A DNA stretch of 36,584 nucleotides from Methanobacteriota archaeon (GCA_016841625.1 JAENYU010000017.1:57081-93664), one strand, 5' to 3'. Shown: positions 11,408-36,584, counted from the stretch's first letter. Notes: generated from the letters alone by a model not told the origin. Program-made: numbers and translations.

Positions 11408-14164
11408 ATGAATGATCTAACTCCTGCAATGCGCCAGTACTACGAAGCAAAGCAAGCATACCCCGATACCCTCATCTTCTTCCGGATGGGAGACTTTTAC
11501 GAGTCCTTCGGAGACGACGCGAAGACAATCGCAAAAGAACTGGAAATCACCCTGACAGGTCGGGGAAAGGATAAGTCCGGGGAAAGGATGCCGCTTGCAG
11601 GAATTCCTTACCATGCCATTGACACCTACCTCCCGAGGCTAATCAACAAAGGGTACAAGGTGGCAATCTGCGAGCAGCTTGAAGACCCGAAACAGGCAAA
11701 AGGGGTCGTAAAAAGGGGCGTTGTCCGGGTGGTGACCCCGGGGACAGCCATAGATTCTTCCATGTTTTCCGACGCCTCGAATAACTACCTGATGGCAGTA
11801 GCGGGCAGGGAAGTTGGAAAAAGCGGGAACAAAAAAGGTGGGAGTGGGAAGAGCGGGAACGCGAAAGGCGGGAACGCGAAAAGCCCCGGGGAAATGGAAC
11901 TGGGAGTCTCCTTTCTGGACATCTCCACGGGGGAATTCCTGACCACCCAGTTCAGGGACTCGGAGGGCTTTGAAAAGCTTATGAGCGAACTTGCCCGCAT
12001 GCGCCCTGCAGAGTGCATCCTGCCCCCTTCCCTGTACGGGAACCCCGAACTTGCAGGCCGGCTCAGGGAGCAGACCATTGTCCACGAATTTGCCCCCGAA
12101 CTTTCCGAAACCGGAGACGCGGGAGAGATGCTTAAAGAACACTTTGGGGTTGCGACCCTGGAAGGGATGGGCTGCGAAAACCTGGAGTTTGCGACATACT
12201 CCGCCTGGGCAGCCCTGGAATACGCGAAAACCACCCAGATGCGGGACCTTGCCCACATAAACACCCTGCGGACCTACTCGAACTCCGAGTTCATGGTGCT
12301 CGACGCAATAACCCTGCGCAACCTGGAAATCATAAAAAACGTGCGGGACGGCGGGGACGAAAACTCTCTTTTCAAGGTGCTGGACAGCACAAAAACCCCC
12401 ATGGGAAGCCGGGCCCTGAAAAAATGGCTCTTAAAACCCCTCCTCTCCGTTGAACAGATCAACCGGCGGCTGGACGCCGTAGAAGAACTGGCAGGGGATG
12501 CCCTGCTCCGCTATGACATCCGGGACTGGCTCTCCGAGATCCGGGACATCGAACGCCTGGTTGGCCGCATCGTGTACGGAAACTCCAACGCAAGGGACCT
12601 TGTCGCACTCCGGAAATCCCTGGCAGCCGTCGTGCCCGTAAGGGACTGCCTCCGCGAAAAGACACGAGCGGAACTCCTGGCAGGGATAGGAAAGGAGCTT
12701 GCAGCGTTCTCCGAACTCGAAAACCTGGAGGAGCTAATCGAAAAGGCAATCGCAGACGAAGCTCCCTTAACGGTCCGGGAAGGCGGGATGATCAAAAAGG
12801 GCTACAATGAAGAGCTGGACGAGCTCCGGGACATCTCAAGCAACAGCAAACAGTGGCTTGCCGCATTCCAGCAAAAAGAAAGGGATAAATCCGGCATCAA
12901 GTCCCTGAAAATAGGGTACAACAAGGTCTTTGGCTACTATATCGAGGTTACAAAAGCCAATATCGCCCAGGTACCTGAGGACTATATAAGAAAACAAACC
13001 ATGACCAACGCCGAGCGTTTTTTCACCCCCGAGCTGAAGGAAAAGGAAAGCCTGATCCTTTCTGCCAACGAAAAAGCCGTGGCCCTGGAATACGAACTCT
13101 TCGCGAAAATCACGAAAACCGTTGCAGGCTACGCAAGGGAACTGCAGCAGACAGCCGAAAACACCGGGGCTCTGGACGTGCTTGCCAACCTGGCAGAGGC
13201 TGCCGAAAATAACACCTATATCCGCCCACAGTTGACCGAGGACTGCACGATTCTGATAAGGGACGGGAGACACCCTGTCGTGGAAAACACCGTCCCCGGG
13301 GGATTTGTCCCTAACGATACCGAAATGGACTGCAAGGAAAAGCAGTTTTTGCTGGTCACAGGCCCGAACATGGCAGGAAAGTCCACCTACATGCGCCAGG
13401 CCGCCCTGATTGCCATCATGGCCCAGGCAGGCTCTTTTGTCCCGGCGTCCCACGCCTCCATCGGGACCGTAGACCAGGTCTTTACGAGGATAGGGGCTTT
13501 TGACGACCTGGCAAGCGGGCAGAGTACTTTCATGGTGGAGATGGTGGAACTTGCCAACATCCTGAACAACGCAAGCCCCAAAAGCCTGGTCCTCCTGGAC
13601 GAAATCGGGAGAGGGACGAGCACCTACGATGGGTACAGCATCGCAAAAGCCGTGGTTGAATACCTGCACAACCGGGGAAAGGTAGGGGTAAGGGCCCTCT
13701 TTGCCACGCACTACCACCAGCTGACAGCTCTTGAGGAAAAGTTAAAGCGAGTCAGGAACTACCATATCGCTGTAAAAGAAGAAGGGCACGAACTCGTCTT
13801 CCTGAGAAAAATCGTGCCCGGGGCAACCGACCGGAGTTACGGGATCCATGTTGCAAGGCTTGCAGGGGTCCCCGAGAAAGTGATAGACAGGGCAAACGAG
13901 ATCCTGAAGGAACTTGAACAGGAGAGCCTGCTGGAAGAAGATGCGGAAAATTCCGGAAACGGGAAAAGGAAAAAGAAAGGAAGGGCAGGCCTGCGCTACA
14001 CCCAGATGATGCTTTTTGACCCGGGAAGCCAGAGCGAAGGAAACGGAAATGTCCCGGGTCCGGTGGAAAAAGCCCTGAACAAAATGAACCCGGAAACAAT
14101 GACACCCATTGAGGCCCTGAACAAGCTGTGCGAACTGAAAAAACTGGCCGAAAGGAGGGGGTGA
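11408..14164 (+). CDS. mutS: DNA mismatch repair protein MutS
   Basis: MutS binds mispaired bases and, with ATP, recruits MutL. The 918-residue product has the mismatch-recognition motif GDFYESF (Phe30, Glu32), the connector and lever domains, and the ATPase: Walker A GPNMAGKS at 652-659, Walker B LVLLDE at 727-732, then GRGTSTYDG. The C-terminal tail (LNKLCELKKLAE) matches the bacterial tetramerisation/clamp region. Relative to bacterial MutS it has a low-complexity Gly/Lys/Ser insertion near residues 137-160 (GNKKGGSGKSGNAKGG) and a charged insertion near 845-860. The ATG has GGGAG about 7 nt upstream. It overlaps no gene and is followed after six bases by mutL, so they form an operon. This bacterial-type pair in Methanosarcina is generally regarded as acquired from bacteria. 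Confidence 0.97.
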   Translation: MNDLTPAMRQYYEAKQAYPDTLIFFRMGDFYESFGDDAKTIAKELEITLTGRGKDKSGERMPLAGIPYHAIDTYLPRLINKGYKVAICEQLEDPKQAKGVVKRGVVRVVTPGTAIDSSMFSDASNNYLMAVAGREVGKSGNKKGGSGKSGNAKGGNAKSPGEMELGVSFLDISTGEFLTTQFRDSEGFEKLMSELARMRPAECILPPSLYGNPELAGRLREQTIVHEFAPELSETGDAGEMLKEHFGVATLEGMGCENLEFATYSAWAALEYAKTTQMRDLAHINTLRTYSNSEFMVLDAITLRNLEIIKNVRDGGDENSLFKVLDSTKTPMGSRALKKWLLKPLLSVEQINRRLDAVEELAGDALLRYDIRDWLSEIRDIERLVGRIVYGNSNARDLVALRKSLAAVVPVRDCLREKTRAELLAGIGKELAAFSELENLEELIEKAIADEAPLTVREGGMIKKGYNEELDELRDISSNSKQWLAAFQQKERDKSGIKSLKIGYNKVFGYYIEVTKANIAQVPEDYIRKQTMTNAERFFTPELKEKESLILSANEKAVALEYELFAKITKTVAGYARELQQTAENTGALDVLANLAEAAENNTYIRPQLTEDCTILIRDGRHPVVENTVPGGFVPNDTEMDCKEKQFLLVTGPNMAGKSTYMRQAALIAIMAQAGSFVPASHASIGTVDQVFTRIGAFDDLASGQSTFMVEMVELANILNNASPKSLVLLDEIGRGTSTYDGYSIAKAVVEYLHNRGKVGVRALFATHYHQLTALEEKLKRVRNYHIAVKEEGHELVFLRKIVPGATDRSYGIHVARLAGVPEKVIDRANEILKELEQESLLEEDAENSGNGKRKKKGRAGLRYTQMMLFDPGSQSEGNGNVPGPVEKALNKMNPETMTPIEALNKLCELKKLAERRG

Positions 14165-14170
14165 AAAGAC

Positions 14171-16201
14171 ATGGAAAGCCAGGAGAACATGGAAAACCAG
14201 GAGAACATGGAAAACCAGGGAAACCGGATCCGAGTCCTTGATAAAGATACCATTAACAAGATCGCAGCAGGGGAGGTGATCGAACGGCCCGCGTCCGCCA
14301 TAAAGGAACTGGTAGACAACGCAATCGATGCCGGAGCTACCGAGATCCGGATCGAGGTAGAGAATGGGGGCAAGAAATCGATTCTTGTCCGGGACAACGG
14401 CTGCGGGATGAGCCGGGCAGATGCCCTCCTCGCATATGAAAAACACGCAACGAGCAAGCTGACGAAAATCGAAGACCTGGACACCGTGACCACCATGGGT
14501 TTCCGGGGAGAAGCTCTCTCCTCCATTACTGCCATCGCAAAAGTGGAAATCCTGACCCGCCCCCCCGAAGAACTCGCAGGCACGAAGGTCGTCGTCCACG
14601 GAGGGAAGGTACAGGAAAGCTCGAATGTCGGCACGGCTCCGGGAACAGCAGTGCACGTAAAAGACCTCTTTTACAACACCCCGGCAAGGCAAAAGTACCT
14701 TAAAAGCGACAGGACCGAACTTGCCCATATCGCAGATGTTGTCATGAAACTCGCCCTGGCAAACCCCGGGATATCGTTTACCCTCCTCAGTGATGGAAAG
14801 CCCGTCCTCAGAAACCCCGCTTCAAGCGAGCTCCTTAATAGTGTCGTAAACCTGCTCGGCCCCGAAACTGCCAGGTCCATGCTCCCCATAGAATCTCTTG
14901 AGGGAGATGTTGTGATCCGGGGCTGCATCTCAAAGCCCGAACTTACGCGGGGGACAGGAGATCAGCTGTTCCTCTTTGTAAACACCCGCCCCGTGACCTC
15001 AAAAGCCGTAAACGCAGCCATCCGCCAGGGTTACTATACGAAAATCCCAAAAGGACGCTACCCTGTGGCTGTGCTCTCCCTCACCCTCGACCCGCAGGAA
15101 GTGGACGTAAATGTGCACCCTCGAAAAGCAGAGGTCCGCTTCAGCCGGGAAAAAGAAATCAGCAATGCAGTGACTGCAGCCGTGGAAAAGACCCTTTCAA
15201 AACACGGACTTGCCCCCGAGATAAGGAAAAAGGAAGTAAATGCCCTCCAGAAGACCCTGGAAATCCCGGACCCTGCCGGGAAGCCGGACCATTCCGGAAA
15301 GCCGGAATTTGAAGGGAAAGCGGAAACTCTGGAAAATCCCGCAAAAGAGGCAGAAAAGACTGCAGAAGTACCGGCAGGCGGCAGCAGGCTGTTCAGGGAA
15401 AAACCCGAGACTTACAGTTATCCGGTAAAGGATACCGAAAAGAAGCTGAAAAAGTCTGAACGTTTCCTGGATTTAGCAGGCGAAAGCGAGGCAGGAGAAG
15501 CAGGGAGGGAAAGGAAGCCGGAACGGGGAGAAGAAGAGGGAAGGGAAGTCGGAAGAGAAGAAGGAAAGAAGGAAGAAGGGGAGCAAAAGCCGGGGAAAAA
15601 AACGAATAAAAAAGTCAACACCGAACCCCTCGAAGACCTCCGGATAATCGGGCAGGTCTCGAAGATCTATATCCTTGCCGAAAGGGGGGAAGACCTTGTG
15701 ATCATCGACCAGCACGCAGCCCACGAGCGCGTCCTCTACGAGCAGATCCTGAAGATGAAAAAGTCCAGGGTGCAGGAACTGATAACCCCGATTACGATAG
15801 ACCTGACCCCGAAAGAAAAAGTGCTAATGGAAGAATACATCCCCTACCTTGAAGAACACGGTTTCGGAATCTCGGAATTCGGGGACAACACCTATGTGGT
15901 TACCTTCGTTCCGGACTTCTTCGGGCGTCTGGAAGACCCCGGCATTATCCACGATATCATCTCGGAGCTTCTTGCGGGCGGAAAGGTCAAAAAGGACACG
16001 GGGATTTCGGAAAGGGTCTGCAAGACCATGGCATGCAGGGCTGCAATCAAAGGAGGTGCAGCCTGTTCCTTGCGGCAGATGGAAGACCTGGTGGAGCAGC
16101 TGAAACAGGCGGAAAATCCCTACTCCTGCCCCCACGGGAGGCCCACGGTCCTGACCTTTACGAGAGGGGAACTTGACCGCATGTTTGCCAGGATCCAGTG
16201 A
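14171..16201 (+). CDS. mutL: DNA mismatch repair endonuclease MutL
   Basis: MutL links mismatch recognition by MutS to strand removal. The N-terminal GHKL ATPase shows KELVDNAIDAG (Glu46 catalytic), DNGCGMSR and GFRGEALSS. A long charged linker (about residues 360-480) follows. The C-terminal domain has DQHAAHERVLYE, an exact match to the endonuclease motif DQHA-x2-E-x4-E, plus ACR and CPHGRP zinc-site motifs, so it should nick DNA like MutL of bacteria that lack MutH. The N-terminus is extended by an 18-bp tandem repeat giving in-frame ATGs at 14171, 14189 and 14207; the first has GGAGGGGG 9 nt upstream. The 676-residue length is typical. It is co-transcribed with mutS. Confidence 0.97.
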   Translation: MESQENMENQENMENQGNRIRVLDKDTINKIAAGEVIERPASAIKELVDNAIDAGATEIRIEVENGGKKSILVRDNGCGMSRADALLAYEKHATSKLTKIEDLDTVTTMGFRGEALSSITAIAKVEILTRPPEELAGTKVVVHGGKVQESSNVGTAPGTAVHVKDLFYNTPARQKYLKSDRTELAHIADVVMKLALANPGISFTLLSDGKPVLRNPASSELLNSVVNLLGPETARSMLPIESLEGDVVIRGCISKPELTRGTGDQLFLFVNTRPVTSKAVNAAIRQGYYTKIPKGRYPVAVLSLTLDPQEVDVNVHPRKAEVRFSREKEISNAVTAAVEKTLSKHGLAPEIRKKEVNALQKTLEIPDPAGKPDHSGKPEFEGKAETLENPAKEAEKTAEVPAGGSRLFREKPETYSYPVKDTEKKLKKSERFLDLAGESEAGEAGRERKPERGEEEGREVGREEGKKEEGEQKPGKKTNKKVNTEPLEDLRIIGQVSKIYILAERGEDLVIIDQHAAHERVLYEQILKMKKSRVQELITPITIDLTPKEKVLMEEYIPYLEEHGFGISEFGDNTYVVTFVPDFFGRLEDPGIIHDIISELLAGGKVKKDTGISERVCKTMACRAAIKGGAACSLRQMEDLVEQLKQAENPYSCPHGRPTVLTFTRGELDRMFARIQ

Positions 16202-29008: not shown

Positions 29009-30505
29009 TCAATTCACGTCCCCGTTTCCATTAATTGTAAGCATAATCTCCCTGAAACTTGCCAGCGAAGCCTCCATATTCTCGATGATCTCGGTTGCAA
29101 GCACATCGGGATCCGGAAGGTTGTCCAGGTCTGCGAGGCTTTTGTCTTTGAGCCAGAAGATATCCAGGTTCGTTTTATCCCTTGCTACAATTTCATCATA
29201 GCCGAATTTCCGGAACCTGCCTTCGGGAGCTTCTTCACCCCAGGTCTCTATACGGCTGAAGCGGTTTTCCGGGTTGTAGCATTTGATGAAGGCTTCAAGA
29301 TCCGAAAACTTCATCGGATTCTTTTTCAGGGTGTGATGCACATTTGTGCGGTAGTCGTAGATCCACACTTCTTTTGTCCAGGGCTCTTTTGCTGCGGGTT
29401 TTGCTTCAAAGAAAAGCACGTTTGCCTTTACCCCATTCGCATAGAAGATCCCTGTCGGCAGGCGCAGGATTGTGTGCAGGTCGGTGGTCTCAAGAAGTTT
29501 TTTGCGCACGGTCTCCCCTGCTCCGCCTTCAAACAGCACATTGTCCGGCAATACCACTGCTGCCTGCCCGCCGGTTTTGAGGATGGTGTGGATATGCTGC
29601 ACAAAGTTTAGCTGCTTGTTGCTCGTGGTTGTCCAGAAGTCCTGACGGTTGTAAGTGAGCTCTTCTTTTTCCTGCTCGCCTTCTTCGTTTGTGAAGGTCA
29701 TGCTGCTCTTCTTTCCAAAAGGCGGGTTGGTGAGGATGTAATCGTAACGGTAACCCGGATCGGCTATGAGAGCATCGGAATTGGAGATCATAGGCTCCCC
29801 GTCTATTTCCCCGATGTTGTGCAGGAACATATTCATCAGGGCAAGCCTGCGGGTCCCTGCGACTATCTCGTTCCCACCAAAGGTTTTGTTTTTCAAAAAG
29901 CGGCTCTGTTCCCGGTCCGGCTGGTGCTGTGAGGTAAGGAAGTCATAAGCTGCTAAAAAGAACCCGCCTGTCCCGCAGCAGGGGTCTCCGATTGTCTTCA
30001 TGGGTTCTGGCTGCAGGCACCGGACCATGACCTTGATGAGCGGCCTTGGGGTGAAATACTGTCCGGCTCCGCTTTTTGTATCCTCTGCGTTCTTCTGCAA
30101 GAGCCCTTCGTAGATCTCTCCCTTGGTATCCACACCCATCATGACCCAGCTTTCCTTGTCGATCATATCAATGACCTTGTACAGCATGGCAGGATCGCTG
30201 ATCTTGTTCTGCGCCTTGAGGAAGATCTGCCCGAGCATCCCCGGCTTTTTCCCAAGCTCTTCCAAAAGCCCCTTGTAATGAGTATCGAGCTCTGCTCCAC
30301 GCTGCTGTTTCAAATTATCCCAGGTATATTCCTCCGGGATGCCAATATCCCTGTTATACGGCTCCTTCCTGTACTCCTGAGCCATTTTCAGGAATATGAG
30401 ATAGGTCAACTGTTCCAGATAATCTCCATAGCTCACGCCCCCGTCCCTCAGGACGTTGCAGAAGCTCCAGACTTTGGAAACGATGGATGAGGTATTTTCA
30501 GACAT
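29009..30505 (-). CDS. hsdM: Type I restriction-modification methylase subunit HsdM
   Basis: A 498-residue N6-adenine DNA methyltransferase subunit. An N-terminal helical domain (about 1-135) leads into the catalytic domain: GQYFTPRPLI, motif I DPCCGTGGFF (174-183) for SAM binding, GNEI, and catalytic motif IV NPPFG (260-264). It works as a 2:1 complex with HsdS. The ATG at 30505 has AAGGA 8 nt upstream and overlaps the stop of a fragment ahead of it. The gene is the last in a minus-strand cluster and is separated from hsdS by about 2.4 kb, which is unusual. Its base composition is clearly more GC-rich than the genes just upstream. Confidence 0.95.
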   Translation of the reverse strand: MSENTSSIVSKVWSFCNVLRDGGVSYGDYLEQLTYLIFLKMAQEYRKEPYNRDIGIPEEYTWDNLKQQRGAELDTHYKGLLEELGKKPGMLGQIFLKAQNKISDPAMLYKVIDMIDKESWVMMGVDTKGEIYEGLLQKNAEDTKSGAGQYFTPRPLIKVMVRCLQPEPMKTIGDPCCGTGGFFLAAYDFLTSQHQPDREQSRFLKNKTFGGNEIVAGTRRLALMNMFLHNIGEIDGEPMISNSDALIADPGYRYDYILTNPPFGKKSSMTFTNEEGEQEKEELTYNRQDFWTTTSNKQLNFVQHIHTILKTGGQAAVVLPDNVLFEGGAGETVRKKLLETTDLHTILRLPTGIFYANGVKANVLFFEAKPAAKEPWTKEVWIYDYRTNVHHTLKKNPMKFSDLEAFIKCYNPENRFSRIETWGEEAPEGRFRKFGYDEIVARDKTNLDIFWLKDKSLADLDNLPDPDVLATEIIENMEASLASFREIMLTINGNGDVN

Positions 30506-30809
30506 GGTTTGAATCCTTGAGATGAGAGTAATATTTTTGATTCGGGCTGCTTGGTTTTTCAGGAATGGTCATATGGAGAATACCATTCTCTAAAAGTGGC
30601 TTTAATATGTGTTTTCGGAAATGTTCCCGATGTGTTAATTGCAAGTGTTCCATAATTTCGCTGGCTGTTTTAGGCTCCGTACAAAATTCGATTATTATAT
30701 CCTGTTTGTCAACTTGCGCGGTAGCTTGCGCGGTAACTTGCGCGGTAGCTTGCGCGGTAGCCTGCTGGGTAGCCTGCTGGGTGGCCTGCTGGGTAGCTTG
30801 CGGGGTAAT
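30498..30809 (-). pseudogene. C-terminal fragment of a RecG-like/AlbA-domain protein with TAQA/TQQA repeats
   Basis: The frame opens after a stop at 30810 and reads ITPQATQQATQQATQQATAQ followed by more AQVTAQATAQV units, then IIEFCTEPKTASEIMEHLQL, THREHFRKHILKPLLENGIL and NQKYYSHLKDSNHV. The second part is the winged-helix C-terminus found after PQVTPQV repeats in AlbA_2/ATP-binding (RecG-like) proteins associated with restriction loci. The 12-bp repeats run from about 30713 to 30806. No ATG, GTG or TTG start with a ribosome-binding site precedes the repeats, and the N-terminal ATP-binding part is gone, so it seems a remnant. Its TGA overlaps the hsdM start. Confidence 0.65.
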
Positions 30810-30812
30810 TTA

Positions 30813-31056
30813 CAGTATCATTTAACCAGCCGGTGATATCATTTGATCCTGTGGTTTGTATTTTTGCTCCCTCAATTGAACCCTCAGTTTTCTCATCGGA
30901 GTAGTAGGAGTGATCATATTAACAAATCATCAATCCAGCTCACTTCTTCCTATTCCCTACTCTCTCAACCCTCGTATTTCCAGCAATAATTACTTTTTTT
31001 TCAATATAGAAACTTAGATAATTCCTGGTGTTGAAACGGGAGGATGATAATTTTAA
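30813..31056. other. Gap between the degraded fragment and the DUF262 gene
   Basis: AT-rich non-coding DNA; the missing upstream part of the fragment is not found here. No further feature can be supported. Confidence 0.4.
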
Positions 31057-32931
31057 TTATAACCGTACATCATCCTCATTTTCTTCCTCTGTCTCGTCCT
31101 CATATTCATCAAATGATGAATATATTTCTGAAAACGATTCATTTAGCTTCCATCGTTCATCAAGAAATGATAGCATTATTTCTTCCCTTTGTTTGATATT
31201 TTTTATCTTCCATGAATCATTTTCATTGGCAATTTCGATCTCAGAAAAAGATCCTTTCTTGTATCCCTCTTTTTTCTTGTCAAAACTTGAATTAAGTAGT
31301 TCAGAATTTTTATATTTACTAATTAAAACAAGATTTCCTAAAGAATGAGTCCAACGTTTAATGTCAATTTTATCCATTTTTGCGACATTTTTTTTCCACT
31401 TAGTACCTTCAGTGGTTTGGGGCAAAATATGTTCAACAGATTTTGACTTTGACCTAGCAAATGAAAATGATACCTTACGATCTTCAGAGCCTTTAATTTT
31501 TTCTTCATACTCATATAGGAAGTAATTAAGTGCACCCCATGAGTAATATCCCATCTTTTTGCTGGATTTAAACAATTCTTGTATCTCTAGTTCAAACCTT
31601 TCTTTATCTCCGTAGTAATCAATATACCAAGCAAGCAACGACAAGGCATGACGTTGAGTTTCTTCATCTGAATATGATGAATGATAACCTAAACAGTGTC
31701 TATAAATATCATTTTTCCCTGTATCAGAACGTCTTCTGTTCATAGAAAAAAGCCTGAATGAAAAAATTTCAGTCAATTTTATCAATTTTAGAAGAAATGA
31801 AGGATTTTCATTCATTGAGGGCATGAATGCCAAAATAAGTGGTCTAACAGCACTATTGCTAAGTTGATTCAATTTCTCAAGATATGATTTGATTTCATAT
31901 CTTAATTTTTTATTCTCAACCTCAGGAAAAGCTTTGTCTTCAGTGGGGTAATTTATAAACCTCCAATGAAGAGAGGCTGTAGCCAATGAATCAATGTATT
32001 TGCTTATCTCAGTCATCATTGATTCAGGATTTTCAACCATTTTGCCGATAGTAAATTCTTTATTAAGAATCTCATCTTTCGCTTTGTTATCTTTACTCCA
32101 ACCCTTATAAATGATCCAGTGATTACTTAAAAATGTGTCTTCATCCAATACTTCATCGGGAAGTGTGAGGTTTCTGAGAATTATAGACCATTTTTGGTTA
32201 ATCTGCTCAGAAAGTTTTGTGACAGTACTTTCGTTTTCCTCTTCAAGCTTAATTTTAGAAGTCAAATACAGAAGCCTATTCTTTACAATTTCAAGGTTTG
32301 AAAGATCCACCCCACGATTATTCATCGTTTCAAACACAATACCAATTTCAGCTGTATCCGAGATAATGTATTCATTAAACAGCAGTTTTTCTTCAATAGC
32401 ATTAAGAAATTCTAATTCTCGATCCTCATTTTTTGTAAAGTAATCACTGATTATTTTTTTAGCGGCTTTGAGGTTACGGGTATAATGGTTTTCATCCAAC
32501 GAGCTCAGATTTTCTATTTCAAGGATAAGTGATTTGAAGTAATTTTCGCTAGTTTTATCTATTGCATATCTAAACAAGTAGCTATTTCTGTTAACAATAT
32601 ATGTCTTCTCTTTTTCTTTTGCATCTTCTTCATTTTCATTATTTTTTAATTTCTTAATGAGGTGAGATAAGATGAGAATAAGAGTGGTTATTCTTTGTTG
32701 ACCGTCAACAAGATGGTAAATTTCAAAATTATTAAGGCCTACTTTTTCAGTTTCATTTTGTTTTTGTATTGTGATGGTACCGGTATAGTGGTGACTATCA
32801 AGCCTTATGGCGTGATCAATATCAGTTAAAAAGTCTTCGATTTGCTTTTTTTGCCAACTGTAACCCCTTTGGTACGAAGGGACAACGTATATACGTGTAT
32901 TGAAAAAATGTGTTAGTTGTTTTAGTTCCAT
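31057..32931 (-). CDS. DUF262/DUF1524 (GmrSD-like) protein in the type I locus
   Basis: A 624-residue protein with two recognisable ends. The N-terminal DUF262 (ParB/GmrS-like) part has VPSYQRGYSW (17-26) and VDGQQRITTL (75-84), used in nucleotide binding and hydrolysis. The C-terminal DUF1524 (HNH-type, GmrD-like) part has SVEHILPQ (498-505) followed by LGNLVLIS and N-S-F, the expected nuclease pattern. GmrSD proteins are type IV enzymes that cut modified DNA; related BrxU-type proteins accompany other defence systems. ATG 32931 follows GGGTGA, which contains the hsdS stop codon, so it is translationally coupled to hsdS. An upstream ATG at 32952 is possible. The acidic C-terminus (DEYEDETEEENEDD) is odd. 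Confidence 0.88.
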   Translation of the reverse strand: MELKQLTHFFNTRIYVVPSYQRGYSWQKKQIEDFLTDIDHAIRLDSHHYTGTITIQKQNETEKVGLNNFEIYHLVDGQQRITTLILILSHLIKKLKNNENEEDAKEKEKTYIVNRNSYLFRYAIDKTSENYFKSLILEIENLSSLDENHYTRNLKAAKKIISDYFTKNEDRELEFLNAIEEKLLFNEYIISDTAEIGIVFETMNNRGVDLSNLEIVKNRLLYLTSKIKLEEENESTVTKLSEQINQKWSIILRNLTLPDEVLDEDTFLSNHWIIYKGWSKDNKAKDEILNKEFTIGKMVENPESMMTEISKYIDSLATASLHWRFINYPTEDKAFPEVENKKLRYEIKSYLEKLNQLSNSAVRPLILAFMPSMNENPSFLLKLIKLTEIFSFRLFSMNRRRSDTGKNDIYRHCLGYHSSYSDEETQRHALSLLAWYIDYYGDKERFELEIQELFKSSKKMGYYSWGALNYFLYEYEEKIKGSEDRKVSFSFARSKSKSVEHILPQTTEGTKWKKNVAKMDKIDIKRWTHSLGNLVLISKYKNSELLNSSFDKKKEGYKKGSFSEIEIANENDSWKIKNIKQREEIMLSFLDERWKLNESFSEIYSSFDEYEDETEEENEDDVRL

Positions 32932-32935
32932 AATT

Positions 32936-35065
32936 TCACCCTTTGTTTTCATTACTTTTTGTTTTCTCCACCTTCACCCTCTCTAACAAAACCTCAGCCG
33001 GCTCCCAATCCTCTGCCCCTCGAACCTCTGCCAGCTCCTTTTCATTGAGCAACTTCCCTTCAAACGCCTTTTTCAAAATACTCTGCCGCAGTGCTTCGGC
33101 TCTTTCCAGATTATCTTTTAGATCCTGCTCTATCTTATCGCAGACTGAAAGGCGGGTTTCGATTTCCTGGACGATTGATTGTTGTTCAGAAGTGGAACAA
33201 ATAGGAATTATTAAAGATTGTAATTCTCCTGAATTGATGTTATTAACTCCACTTGTTGATTTTGCTTTTGACTCTATTTGATAACGCAAATCTATTGAGG
33301 AAAGACAATTTAACAGGTACTTTGAATTAATTAATGAGCTGATGGGCCTGAGTCTAATTAAATAACCTGCATACAGATACTTTTCATCTTTTGTGCCAAC
33401 CAATGCACATTTCCCCACTAAATCAACACTCCCATTAGACCGAATTGTAAGAATGTCCCCAGTTTTCAATCGGTAATTTTCAATTTCAGTAGAATCAAAT
33501 TGAGCATATTTCAAGTCAGAATCATTAATTAAACCATCTGAAATATTTGGTATGCGAAGTACTCCTATGCCATTTACGTTGTAGTCACATTTTTTTGAAG
33601 TTCCATATTTAGGTTCTTCAACTAAATTACCCAGCCTAATCCAGCCCCATCCTTTAGGTAAATTTGGCAATTCAGTTTCTGTGAAAGGAGTGGTTTCCTT
33701 AGATTTTTTAGGTTTGGTGGGTTTTTTATCTTTCTTTCCCGCATCCTCCCATTCTTTTACCGACTTTTTCCATTCTTCCAGTTTTGTGTTATAACCTTCT
33801 TCCCGCTCAACCCGGATCTGCTCCAGCAAATCCCTAGCATCCGGCAAATCAGTCTGCTGCTCCCGCCATTTTTTCGTAAGCTCTCCCTCAAAAGCTTTCT
33901 TCAGCACCGCCTGCCGATACACCTTGAGCTGTTCCTGTGCCAGTTTGAGGTTGGCAATGCCGTTGTCCAGTTCGCTGAAGAGTTGCTCGATTTTGGAAAC
34001 TATGGCGCGTTGTTCGGGGAGAGGTGCAAGATTAATTTTTGTGACCCTTATATCCTCTAAGTGAAAATTTTTAAGTAATCCACCTTTAATATCTTGGCTT
34101 ATATTTATTGAGTTTAAATAATTTTCAAGAGAATAAAGAAGGAATTTTGTATTAATAATCGATTTATAGTTTTTTAAAAGAGCAACGCTAACAAATAAAC
34201 TAAATTCAGGCTTGTTTGGAACAGTTGCCATTCTTCCAATTGTTCCACTTTTTGTAATTAAAAGGTCATTTGGTTCAGGATAACATCTTTTTATTAATTC
34301 TTTATGCGTTTCGTAACTTATATGTTTACAATTATAAAAATTAACTTTTTCATTATGAATATCTTTAACCGAAATAAATGGGATTCCGGTTTCTGTATAT
34401 TCTGGTGTATGATGAGTGCCATCGACTATTCTAGAACAAACTTGACCTAATTCAGTTTCTATCCATCCAACTTTTTCTTCCATAGTCATGCTATTTTTCA
34501 GCAACCCTTCAGACAGTTCTGGCATCTTCAGAAATTCATCTTCATTGGAAAGTTTAGATTGTGTATGTTTTTTGCTGGAGTTTTTATTGGGATCTGAAGT
34601 GGCGAGATATTCATTACCTGATTCCAACAGCACCATATCCTGATTTTTTATTATTGGAATACTGTTGATGCTTCTATTTTCAAAATAATCCAAAGGTAAA
34701 TAACAGTAAGATTGTGGTGGTCTAAAGTCCTTTTTTAATTTGTAGGGATTAATTGGCTCAGAAAATTTATCAAGATTGGTTATTTCTATTGCATAACCAA
34801 TATCTGAATTTTTGAAATACTCAAAAAAGTCATTTTCAGGGATTCCTCCATATTTCTGGCATTTATTCCAGAGTTTTTGAGGAGAATCGGCAATGATTCT
34901 GGCAATCTCGAATGATGCAACTATTTTTTTGACAGGGGAACTCGAATAAATGAATACTTTACCTATATTCTTTCTCTTGAAAATGGATTTTCTAAATTCG
35001 AATATCTTTTTACCAGCTAGAATTTCATCAACATACTTTGGTTTAATTGACAGTAAAACGTTCAT
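32936..35065 (-). CDS. hsdS: ASCH domain-HsdS fusion, type I specificity subunit
   Basis: 709 residues. Residues 1-130 form an ASCH (PUA-like) domain: MNVLLSIKPKYVDEILAGKK, FEFRK, VFIYSSSPVKKIVASFEI, and IGYAIEI. A linker (131-195) follows. Residues 200-709 are a complete HsdS with two target-recognition domains: the first from GWIETELGQVCSRIVDGTHH, ending at PLPEQRAIVSKIEQLFSELD, and the second from GWGWIRLGNLVEEPKYGTS, ending at SEQQSIVQEIETRL. Each is followed by a helical spacer and LKKAFEG. HsdS recognises the split DNA target; ASCH domains bind RNA or modified nucleotides. Such a fusion is not a standard HsdS architecture in my knowledge. ATG 35065 has GGTGG 8 nt upstream; ATG 35080 is possible. 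It overlaps the upstream gene by 23 bp and the DUF262 coupling signal downstream. Confidence 0.88.
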   Translation of the reverse strand: MNVLLSIKPKYVDEILAGKKIFEFRKSIFKRKNIGKVFIYSSSPVKKIVASFEIARIIADSPQKLWNKCQKYGGIPENDFFEYFKNSDIGYAIEITNLDKFSEPINPYKLKKDFRPPQSYCYLPLDYFENRSINSIPIIKNQDMVLLESGNEYLATSDPNKNSSKKHTQSKLSNEDEFLKMPELSEGLLKNSMTMEEKVGWIETELGQVCSRIVDGTHHTPEYTETGIPFISVKDIHNEKVNFYNCKHISYETHKELIKRCYPEPNDLLITKSGTIGRMATVPNKPEFSLFVSVALLKNYKSIINTKFLLYSLENYLNSINISQDIKGGLLKNFHLEDIRVTKINLAPLPEQRAIVSKIEQLFSELDNGIANLKLAQEQLKVYRQAVLKKAFEGELTKKWREQQTDLPDARDLLEQIRVEREEGYNTKLEEWKKSVKEWEDAGKKDKKPTKPKKSKETTPFTETELPNLPKGWGWIRLGNLVEEPKYGTSKKCDYNVNGIGVLRIPNISDGLINDSDLKYAQFDSTEIENYRLKTGDILTIRSNGSVDLVGKCALVGTKDEKYLYAGYLIRLRPISSLINSKYLLNCLSSIDLRYQIESKAKSTSGVNNINSGELQSLIIPICSTSEQQSIVQEIETRLSVCDKIEQDLKDNLERAEALRQSILKKAFEGKLLNEKELAEVRGAEDWEPAEVLLERVKVEKTKSNENKG

Positions 35066-36530
35066 TGAGTTTGCCACCATTTTTTAGGGTTAGATATTGT
35101 TCATGGTTTATTTCAGTTATCGATTGTGGGGCACTTTTCAAAATACCATTTTCGATTAGATAATTCAGATTCAAAGGATTTGGCAAGTATAAGTGATGCT
35201 TGAAGCGGATTACGAAAACTGATTTTTCTGCCCATTTTTTAAGTTCTTCTTCAGAATATACACTTCTTTTACCTACTATTCTTTTAAGCTCATCTAAATT
35301 ACTAGTTCGTATTGGTTCCTGATCAATTATTCCGAGAGAAGTTATCGCTTTTTGATCATGTGAACGATAAAAAAGAATTATGTCTCCGAGTCCCAATCTT
35401 GAAGAAAATCGTGATGAAAGATATGCCTTTTTAATTGCATTGCCAGGAATATTGATTTCAAAATAATCTGTCAATTTCATTTGCCTTCTTTTGTATTCAG
35501 GAAATAGAATATCATGAAATTCGGGAAGAATTGGGATCACAAATTTATTAACACTTTCACTATCTTTAAAGCAAGGATAGTATTTTCTAGCAATTTCTGA
35601 TGACCGTAATTCAGTCGTTTCCGGAATAAGTTTCTTTAGATATACCGGTTCATCATTCTTTGCCAGCTCTCCTACTTTTTCAAAACCAAAGTTCTCAATG
35701 AGATAAGATAAGGTGTCATCTTCAGTTTCAAAATGAGTTAAGTAAATTTCAAAAATCTGATTATTTATGCAATACTGAAAAGCTATTTTGAGGAAGAGTT
35801 CACCCATTTTAGAACCTGAGAAATCGACCTTTAGTGTTGCAATTTTGACTCTTTTTGTGGCAGGAATGGGATTATGTGTTTCAATAACTTCATTTTCTTC
35901 TTTTAACATGAGGAAAGCTTTAACTTTGTTATCCTCTTCATAAGTGTAACATTCACGACTTTCTTTGATACACTTATCATACCATTTTTTAAAATCCGCA
36001 TCTCCATAATCTGATTTCAGTGAGTCAAAAAACGGTTGATTAATATCAATTTCATGAGCATAGCATTTCCTCAATAAACTATGATTTGGGAAAAAACGTT
36101 GATATAGGCCAGTAAAATAATCGAGAGCTGAATCTATTGAAAACACTCTATCATCAAGATTCAGTAAATTGGCTTTTTTTCCGATCCCTTTATCTTCTGT
36201 TATAAGGAAATCTACAAGATTTTTCTTAAGTGAAAAAAGAATTTCGTTGTCATTTTCATCATGTGAATTTACGGGAATACCTACTAAATATGTAAACTCA
36301 TCATCTGGAGTAGGGGGTGAAGGAAGCCGAGGATAACCACGAAGCTTCGATAAAGTTATTTTCCTTCTTTCAGCATCATTATCATTTTCGATATCCTTCA
36401 AAGAAGCAGGATGGATAAACTCCTGATGACCATGTTCTCGGATTATTGTTAACAATGCTTGAAGATTGGGAGAAAGCTCTTTTGGATCTTGAATGTGAAT
36501 TAAAATATTTGTATCATATAGAAGTTTCAT
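35043..36530 (-). CDS. PIN nuclease-GNAT acetyltransferase-PUA-like (EVE/ASCH) protein
   Basis: A 495-residue multidomain protein. Residues 1-135 look like a PIN ribonuclease: LLYDTNILIHI with Asp6, a second acidic site about Asp94/Glu96, and LITEDKG with Asp113. Residues about 150-300 look like a GNAT acetyltransferase: VKIATLKVDFSGSKMGELFL then YLIENFGFEKVGE, the usual motif A and C-terminal strand. Residues about 345-480 look like a PUA-like EVE/ASCH fold: SSRLGLGDIILFYRS and AITSLGIID. It is the first gene of the cluster within the window and overlaps the ASCH-HsdS gene, so the two are tightly coupled. Domain calls are by motif recognition, strongest for PIN and GNAT. It might cut RNA and acetylate a partner or tRNA when triggered by a modified nucleotide; this is inference. 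Confidence 0.78.
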   Translation of the reverse strand: MKLLYDTNILIHIQDPKELSPNLQALLTIIREHGHQEFIHPASLKDIENDNDAERRKITLSKLRGYPRLPSPPTPDDEFTYLVGIPVNSHDENDNEILFSLKKNLVDFLITEDKGIGKKANLLNLDDRVFSIDSALDYFTGLYQRFFPNHSLLRKCYAHEIDINQPFFDSLKSDYGDADFKKWYDKCIKESRECYTYEEDNKVKAFLMLKEENEVIETHNPIPATKRVKIATLKVDFSGSKMGELFLKIAFQYCINNQIFEIYLTHFETEDDTLSYLIENFGFEKVGELAKNDEPVYLKKLIPETTELRSSEIARKYYPCFKDSESVNKFVIPILPEFHDILFPEYKRRQMKLTDYFEINIPGNAIKKAYLSSRFSSRLGLGDIILFYRSHDQKAITSLGIIDQEPIRTSNLDELKRIVGKRSVYSEEELKKWAEKSVFVIRFKHHLYLPNPLNLNYLIENGILKSAPQSITEINHEQYLTLKNGGKLNERFTVN

Positions 36531-36584
36531 AACCTAACTTTGACAGATTTCGATAACTAATACAGTGCTAAGTTGCAAAAAACA

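What the first reader, a model, noticed from the sequence alone, without database searches (positions are those of the whole stretch)
29009..36530. Hybrid type I restriction locus with PIN-GNAT-PUA, ASCH-HsdS, GmrSD-like and HsdM genes
Four tightly packed genes on one strand join domains not normally found together: a PIN nuclease-acetyltransferase-PUA-like protein, an ASCH-HsdS fusion (overlap 23 bp), a DUF262/DUF1524 protein whose ribosome-binding site lies over the hsdS stop, and HsdM. The PUA-like folds read modified bases or RNA, PIN cuts RNA and GmrSD-like enzymes cut modified DNA. The set could be a layered defence system in which host methylation (HsdMS) is paired with sensing of foreign modified nucleic acid and an RNA-cutting abortive response. 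Coupling is seen; the integrated function is inference.
Basis: partly seen in the sequence, partly recalled or inferred. Interest (0 to 1): 0.88.

Follow-up and report, generated by a model that had tools for sequence, protein, structure and literature searches.

The report
Toxin–antitoxin-like pair built into restriction operon
In this methane-making archaeon a DNA restriction-modification operon contains a toxin-like enzyme gene whose likely antidote is physically fused to the DNA-recognition subunit; the arrangement is conserved in relatives and was partly described in 2020, while the extra "GmrSD" nuclease gene is a passenger found in this strain only.

Summary
The genes are real and at the stated coordinates. 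They belong to a Methanosarcina-type archaeon. The core is a complete type I restriction-modification operon: HsdR – PIN-GNAT-EVE – ASCH:HsdS – [variable slot] – HsdM. HsdR (922 aa) is missing from the window only because the contig ends there; it lies on contig C34. The core recurs in 11 Methanosarcinaceae genomes plus one decayed copy. The ASCH:HsdS fusion arose once from an unfused arrangement still present in sister lineages. PIN-GNAT-EVE and ASCH are PADLOC candidate system PDC-M11; an E. coli phage pair in the same two families is annotated GevT toxin/GevA antitoxin. Bell et al. 2020 already reported PIN-GNAT-EVE beside type I RM and ASCH-HsdS fusions in Methanohalophilus. The GmrSD gene is not an integral part: it occupies a slot that elsewhere holds an AlbA_2 gene, nothing, or another DUF262 gene, and it sits beside a remnant of the AlbA_2 gene. 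My preferred mechanism is a PrrC-like guard: the ASCH antitoxin on HsdS holds the toxin silent and inhibition of the restriction complex releases it. That is inference. In this isolate an IS-like element separates the toxin start codon from its ribosome-binding site.

The parts
35043..36530 (-). PIN-GNAT-EVE protein (495 aa), PDC-M11A family; probable RNA-directed toxin/effector
   Evidence: PADLOC PDC-M11A 4e-149; Pfam EVE and PIN_3 across the family; invariant D6, D94, D113; AF2 pLDDT 86.8 with PDB fold matches to ZmASCH and GNATs including TacT
34680..35065 (-). ASCH domain (PDC-M11B) at the N-terminus of the HsdS fusion; probable antitoxin or tether
   Evidence: PDC-M11B 1.7e-49; 77-96% identical across the fused family while both TRDs are replaced
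32936..35080 (-). ASCH:HsdS fusion (714 aa), type I specificity subunit with two target-recognition domains
   Evidence: Methylase_S 1.6e-22; mosaic TRDs
31057..32952 (-). GmrSD-like (DUF262-DUF1524) gene, strain-specific occupant of the slot between hsdS and hsdM; likely start ATG at 32931
   Evidence: GmrSD_N 6e-33, GmrSD_C 5e-19; HEC-06 2e-53; QR, DGQQR and FxxxN motifs present
30944..30990 (-). Duplicated hsdS 3' end left downstream of GmrSD
   Evidence: matches the end of hsdS in L012 and L091 and the sequence that follows it there
30544..30824 (-). Decayed C-terminal remnant of an AlbA_2/COG2865 gene that fills this slot in relatives
   Evidence: 69% identity to residues 374-459 of the L019 protein; the same remnant without GmrSD in L091
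29009..30505 (-). HsdM, type I N6-adenine methyltransferase (498 aa)
   Evidence: N6_Mtase 1.5e-67, HsdM_N 4e-14; dN/dS about 0.05-0.06 against relatives
36533..36584 (.). End of an IS-like element directly upstream of the PIN-GNAT-EVE start; the matching end and hsdR are on contig C34
   Evidence: 14-bp inverted CCTAACTTTGACAG at both contig ends, TTAT duplication against the intact site in L012

Best explanation
A type I restriction-modification operon (HsdR, HsdS, HsdM) has absorbed a two-gene toxin-antitoxin-like module of the PDC-M11/GevTA kind. The toxin is the PIN-GNAT-EVE protein. The antitoxin, ASCH, is fused by a flexible linker to the N-terminus of HsdS. HsdM and HsdS methylate host sites, and HsdR cuts unmethylated incoming DNA. 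ASCH on HsdS binds and silences PIN-GNAT-EVE. If a virus inhibits or dismantles the restriction complex, or HsdS is lost, the toxin is freed, is steered by EVE to its nucleic acid, and blocks translation by RNA cleavage and/or acetylation. This resembles PrrC, which is held by EcoprrI. The slot between hsdS and hsdM takes exchangeable defence genes; here it holds a GmrSD-like type IV nuclease that would independently cut modified DNA. Shown: gene order, conservation, fusion, target-domain swapping, slot exchange. Inferred: toxin/antitoxin roles, release on inhibition, substrate.
For: The operon is conserved with HsdR upstream and HsdM downstream in Methanosarcinaceae. The fusion has one origin (100/99) and unfused sisters keep HsdR-PGE-ASCH-HsdS. 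ASCH is nearly constant while both TRDs are swapped (96% against 24% and 22% to L012), so ASCH does not depend on target specificity. The linker evolves almost freely (dN/dS 0.8-0.98 among the near Methanosarcina relatives) while ASCH and PGE are constrained (0.11-0.35), as expected of a tethered module. No complete PIN-GNAT-EVE gene lacks an ASCH (one ASCH is cut by a contig end), whereas broken PGE beside intact ASCH occurs repeatedly, including beside an intact ASCH:HsdS (L097), and about a dozen genomes carry ASCH alone. The phage pair annotated GevT toxin/GevA antitoxin falls in the same two PADLOC families with the same 23-bp overlap. A precedent for a type I RM that silences an RNase exists: PrrC/EcoprrI (PMC2610378).
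Against: No function has been measured in this family; the GevT/GevA labels are a depositor's annotation and I found no paper. Most PDC-M11 pairs have no type I RM beside them, so RM is not required for ASCH action. The AF2 model of the fusion failed in the ASCH part, so no interface could be examined. Broken PGE genes in draft assemblies may partly be sequencing errors. The same asymmetry would fit any obligate partner, not only an antitoxin.
Confidence: 0.45

Rival explanations
1. ASCH is a reader of modified bases that adds modification specificity to the type I complex (the view of Bell et al. 2020): HsdS carries it to sense modified viral DNA, and PIN-GNAT-EVE acts on the same or a related modified nucleic acid.
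For: PUA/ASCH/EVE domains bind modified bases and HTH-ASCH fusions occur (PMC7641849). The general GxKxxExR region is conserved.
Against: ASCH is unchanged while both TRDs are swapped. ASCH accompanies every complete PIN-GNAT-EVE gene even where no type I RM is present, so its first partner is the toxin-like protein rather than the RM complex.
Confidence: 0.3
2. Independent defence modules in one operon: the fusion only ensures co-expression and stoichiometry, and the modules act separately.
For: GmrSD and AlbA_2 genes come and go in the slot. The PGE-ASCH segment is exchanged between species more recently than hsdR and hsdM (dS 0.14 against 1.01 and 0.62 to L013). For GmrSD itself this is the likely truth.
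Against: The fusion has been kept across several genera with HsdS function maintained (TRD swapping, constrained central and distal regions), and HsdR-PGE-ASCH-HsdS order predates it.
Confidence: 0.2
3. One four-gene layered system with GmrSD as an essential effector.
For: GmrSD is translationally coupled to hsdS and intact in its motifs. GmrSD embedded in type I RM can complement it, as TgvAB does (PMC11411939).
Against: GmrSD is absent from the same operon in all other members; one other has an unrelated DUF262 gene. A remnant shows it occupies a former AlbA_2 slot.
Confidence: 0.05

Closest known systems
PIN-GNAT-EVE/ASCH operons with type I RM, including ASCH-HsdS fusions in Methanohalophilus (Bell, Wolf and Koonin 2020, PMC7641849)
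   Same: Same domain architectures, the same association with HsdR/M/S, the same fusion
   Different: Here in a Methanosarcina-type genome, with a GmrSD gene in the slot; single origin, unfused sisters, TRD swapping and slot exchange are added here
PADLOC candidate system PDC-M11 (A and B)
   Same: Both proteins match their models over the full domain (4e-149, 1.7e-49)
   Different: M11B is here a domain of HsdS
GevT/GevA of Escherichia phage PhiR47_2 (PV340567)
   Same: Same two PADLOC families, same order, same 23-bp overlap
   Different: No PIN domain, ASCH stands alone, phage-borne; the labels are a depositor's annotation
PrrC-EcoprrI (anticodon nuclease silenced by a type Ic RM; PMC2610378)
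   Same: RNA-acting effector encoded in a type I RM locus, with the proposed release on RM inhibition
   Different: PrrC is an ABC-ATPase-type nuclease unrelated to PIN-GNAT-EVE; no antitoxin is fused to HsdS
TgvAB of Vibrio cholerae VPI-2, and RloF (GmrSD-family genes embedded in type I RM; PMC11411939, PMC4619093)
   Same: DUF262/DUF1524 gene inside an hsd operon, likely complementary type IV restriction
   Different: Single gene here (closer to HEC-06), placed between hsdS and hsdM, in an archaeon

Membership tests
PDC-M11 / (PIN)-GNAT-EVE plus ASCH pair | PIN-GNAT-EVE (or GNAT-EVE) protein | tested here: met
   PDC-M11A 4e-149 over residues 1-494; PIN_3 and EVE in family members
PDC-M11 / (PIN)-GNAT-EVE plus ASCH pair | ASCH partner directly downstream with overlap | tested here: met
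   PDC-M11B 1.7e-49, 23-bp overlap; but fused to HsdS
PDC-M11 / (PIN)-GNAT-EVE plus ASCH pair | Toxin and antitoxin activity | not testable with these tools
   Only the asymmetry of loss and a depositor's label
Type I restriction-modification system | HsdM with N6-MTase and HsdM_N domains | tested here: met
Type I restriction-modification system | HsdS with two TRDs and conserved regions | tested here: met
Type I restriction-modification system | HsdR linked to the operon | tested here: met
   On C34, directly upstream in relatives; ResIII, HSDR_N (E 3e-5, just under Pfam cut-off) and EcoEI_R_C; the join across the IS-like element is inferred
GmrSD type IV restriction enzyme | DUF262 with QR, DGQQR, FxxxN and DUF1524 with HNH-type histidine | tested here: met
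   VEHILPQT read in the sequence
GmrSD type IV restriction enzyme | Modification-dependent cleavage | not testable with these tools
   needs enzyme assay
PrrC-EcoprrI-like guard (works like, not member) | PrrC homology | tested here: not met
   The protein is PIN-GNAT-EVE, so not filed as a PrrC member
PrrC-EcoprrI-like guard (works like, not member) | Silencing by the RM complex and release by an anti-restriction factor | not testable with these tools
   experiment needed

The most novel reading that the evidence does not exclude
An antitoxin fused to the specificity subunit makes the whole type I RM complex the immunity factor for a PIN-GNAT-EVE toxin, giving a PrrC-like guard evolved independently in archaea; any virus that disables HsdS or HsdM unleashes it.
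Probability: 0.4. Interest if true: 0.75.

Novelty: new member of a known kind. Interest (0 to 1): 0.45.

Why it matters
It gives an archaeal case in which a toxin-antitoxin-like module is hard-wired to a restriction enzyme by protein fusion, which makes a direct test possible of whether restriction complexes serve as guards for abortive effectors outside PrrC. It also clarifies that the GmrSD gene is an exchangeable passenger, and it gives context to PDC-M11 and GevTA, whose function in archaea is untested.

Tried and rejected
The AF2 model of the ASCH:HsdS fusion was unusable (mean pLDDT 51, ASCH part about 25-37). Pfam alone does not identify the first protein (EVE below threshold); the PADLOC, family-wide Pfam and fold searches did. 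The idea that HsdR is absent was rejected. The idea that the four-gene set is one conserved system was rejected for GmrSD. The idea that DUF262 genes are regularly tied to PIN-GNAT-EVE was rejected: of roughly 150 GmrSD_N matches in 238 genomes only two (this window and M. euhalobius) lie within 3 kb of a PDC-M11A gene, and one more lies 12.5 kb away. ac4C-amidohydrolase activity for ASCH was considered from memory of YqfB: the catalytic Thr position is Glu here, so it is not favoured; this was not tested by structure. Paper searches for PDC-M11 found none, a search for GevT/GevA returned only unrelated words, and a search for ASCH plus antitoxin plus acetyltransferase found none. The transposase of the IS-like element could not be assigned by Pfam. 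One fetched stretch (L153) came from a mistyped handle and was not used.

Full report
What is there. The four reported genes exist at the stated places on the minus strand. The first is a 495-aa PIN-GNAT-EVE protein: it matches PADLOC PDC-M11A over its whole length (4e-149), EVE and PIN_3 are found across its family, D6, D94 and D113 are invariant among 26 relatives, and an AlphaFold2 model (pLDDT 86.8) matches ASCH of Zymomonas and many GNATs including TacT. The second is an ASCH domain (PDC-M11B 1.7e-49) fused to a two-TRD HsdS. The third is a GmrSD-family protein with QR, DGQQR and FxxxN motifs and a DUF1524 domain, nearest to PADLOC HEC-06. The fourth is HsdM.

The window ends where the contig ends. 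HsdR (922 aa; ResIII, SWI2_SNF2, EcoEI_R_C; HSDR_N just under the Pfam cut-off) is on contig C34. Its sequence and flank match the stretch directly upstream of PIN-GNAT-EVE in the relative L012. At the break both contigs carry the same 14-bp terminal repeat in inverted orientation and a TTAT target duplication relative to the intact site GATAAGGAATTATGAAAC of L012. The repeat occurs 11 times in the genome, nearly always about 40-55 bp from a contig end, so a multi-copy IS-like element sits exactly between the native ribosome-binding site and the ATG of the PIN-GNAT-EVE gene. In this isolate expression of the module may be altered. The join is an inference from two contigs.

Relatives. A genome scan gave eight named loci: Methanosarcina spelaei, two Methanosarcina/Methanosarcinaceae assemblies, Methanococcoides seepicolus, Methanohalophilus euhalobius, Methanolobus psychrotolerans, another Methanosarcinaceae MAG and a Methanoperedens MAG. 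A class-wide scan (238 genomes) found PDC-M11A in 53 and PDC-M11B in 61. Neighbourhood annotation shows HsdR – [AlbA_2] – PIN-GNAT-EVE – ASCH:HsdS – [slot] – HsdM in 11 Methanosarcinaceae genomes, plus a decayed copy in a twelfth (L103). In Methanoperedens (L018) and other families (L089, L095) ASCH and HsdS are separate genes in the same order. The protein tree gives one origin for the fused group (100/99; 100% of bootstrap trees).

The slot. Between hsdS and hsdM relatives carry an AlbA_2/COG2865 gene (L013, L014, L015, L019, L090), nothing or a remnant (L016, L084, L091), or a 744-aa DUF262 protein (L017; 22% identical to the window's protein). In the window the GmrSD gene is followed by a second copy of the hsdS 3' end and then by the C-terminal remnant of an AlbA_2 gene, 69% identical to L019; L091 has the same remnant without GmrSD. 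GmrSD therefore entered, probably together with an hsdS 3' end, into a slot that had already lost its AlbA_2 gene. In the class this GmrSD has four relatives at 30-39% identity, none beside PIN-GNAT-EVE.

Selection and exchange. PIN-GNAT-EVE has dN/dS 0.11-0.20, ASCH 0.11-0.35, HsdM about 0.05, HsdR 0.05-0.10: all are maintained. The linker between ASCH and HsdS is nearly free among the near relatives (0.8-0.98). HsdS target domains are swapped: the window and L012 share 96% of ASCH and 100% of the central region but 24-25% of TRD1 and 22-23% of TRD2. Synonymous divergence of PIN-GNAT-EVE against L013 (0.14) is far below that of HsdR (1.01) and HsdM (0.62), so the PIN-GNAT-EVE/ASCH segment moves between species by recombination. 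Composition differences could contribute: HsdM has GC3 0.65 and PIN-GNAT-EVE 0.23.

Toxin-antitoxin logic. In every locus where the PIN-GNAT-EVE gene is complete an ASCH gene adjoins it (one ASCH is cut by a contig end). Broken PIN-GNAT-EVE genes with intact ASCH occur in about seven loci after discounting loci where a neighbouring GNAT gene caused a false call, and about a dozen genomes carry ASCH without PIN-GNAT-EVE. Draft-assembly errors may inflate the number of broken genes. The 23-bp overlap is the same in archaeal chromosomes, in the archaeal virus psiM100 and in Escherichia phage PhiR47_2. That last pair is annotated GevT toxin/GevA antitoxin and matches the same PADLOC families. I found no paper behind those names.

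Mechanism. Supported: an active-looking type I RM system whose specificity is being diversified, carrying an obligatory PIN-GNAT-EVE/ASCH pair with ASCH covalently on HsdS. Inferred: ASCH neutralises the toxin; the RM complex becomes the immunity factor; its inhibition or loss releases the toxin. PrrC, silenced by the type Ic enzyme EcoprrI and activated by phage T4 Stp, is the known system that works this way (PMC2610378), but PIN-GNAT-EVE is not a PrrC homologue. The main rival is that of Bell et al. 2020 (PMC7641849), that ASCH confers modification specificity on the RM complex. GmrSD most likely acts alone as a type IV enzyme against modified DNA, as BrxU (PMC8565348) and TgvAB (PMC11411939) do.

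Novelty. PIN-GNAT-EVE beside type I RM and the ASCH-HsdS fusion were published in 2020; GmrSD genes in type I loci were published in 2015 and 2024. What is added here is the family-wide conservation with single origin, the unfused sisters, constant ASCH against swapped TRDs, the exchangeable slot with a remnant, the asymmetry of loss, and the link to GevT/GevA.

Noticed in passing
G000 contig C39:1088-2605 (-) and locus L082:202-1104 (-): A second PDC-M11A gene in the same genome, whose ASCH partner is a 300-aa protein with a C-terminal extension containing an RNRVAH (HEPN-like Rx4H) motif; Pfam gives only a weak HEPN hit.
   Followed up: partly
window 36533-36584 and L008:1-55 (contig C34): Multi-copy IS-like element with 14-bp terminal repeat CCTAACTTTGACAG and a 4-bp TTAT duplication directly upstream of the PIN-GNAT-EVE start codon; it breaks the assembly at many contig ends.
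   Followed up: partly
L018:5676-6935 (+); G096 and G182 loci (L088, L086): A GNAT protein with a second ASCH-like (PDC-M11B-like) C-terminal region lies between ASCH and HsdS in Methanoperedens, and is fused to ASCH in two other genomes.
   Followed up: no
L121:3031-4482 (-) (G457:C165): A DUF262 protein related to the one in M. euhalobius lies directly upstream of PIN-GNAT-EVE in another family of the phylum.
   Followed up: no
L133:3001-4846 (Methanothermobacter virus psiM100, AF301375): Archaeal virus carries a complete PIN-GNAT-EVE/ASCH pair (ORFD, ORF5) whose PIN-GNAT-EVE gene lies largely in the annotated inserted fragment IFa.
   Followed up: partly
L103:9106-10158 (-) (G098:C9): A deletion has joined the start of PIN-GNAT-EVE to the end of HsdS, removing EVE and ASCH together; a decayed copy of the locus.
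   Followed up: partly
window 11408-16201 (+): Adjacent bacterial-type mutS and mutL genes (Pfam MutS_I-V, MutL_C).
   Followed up: no
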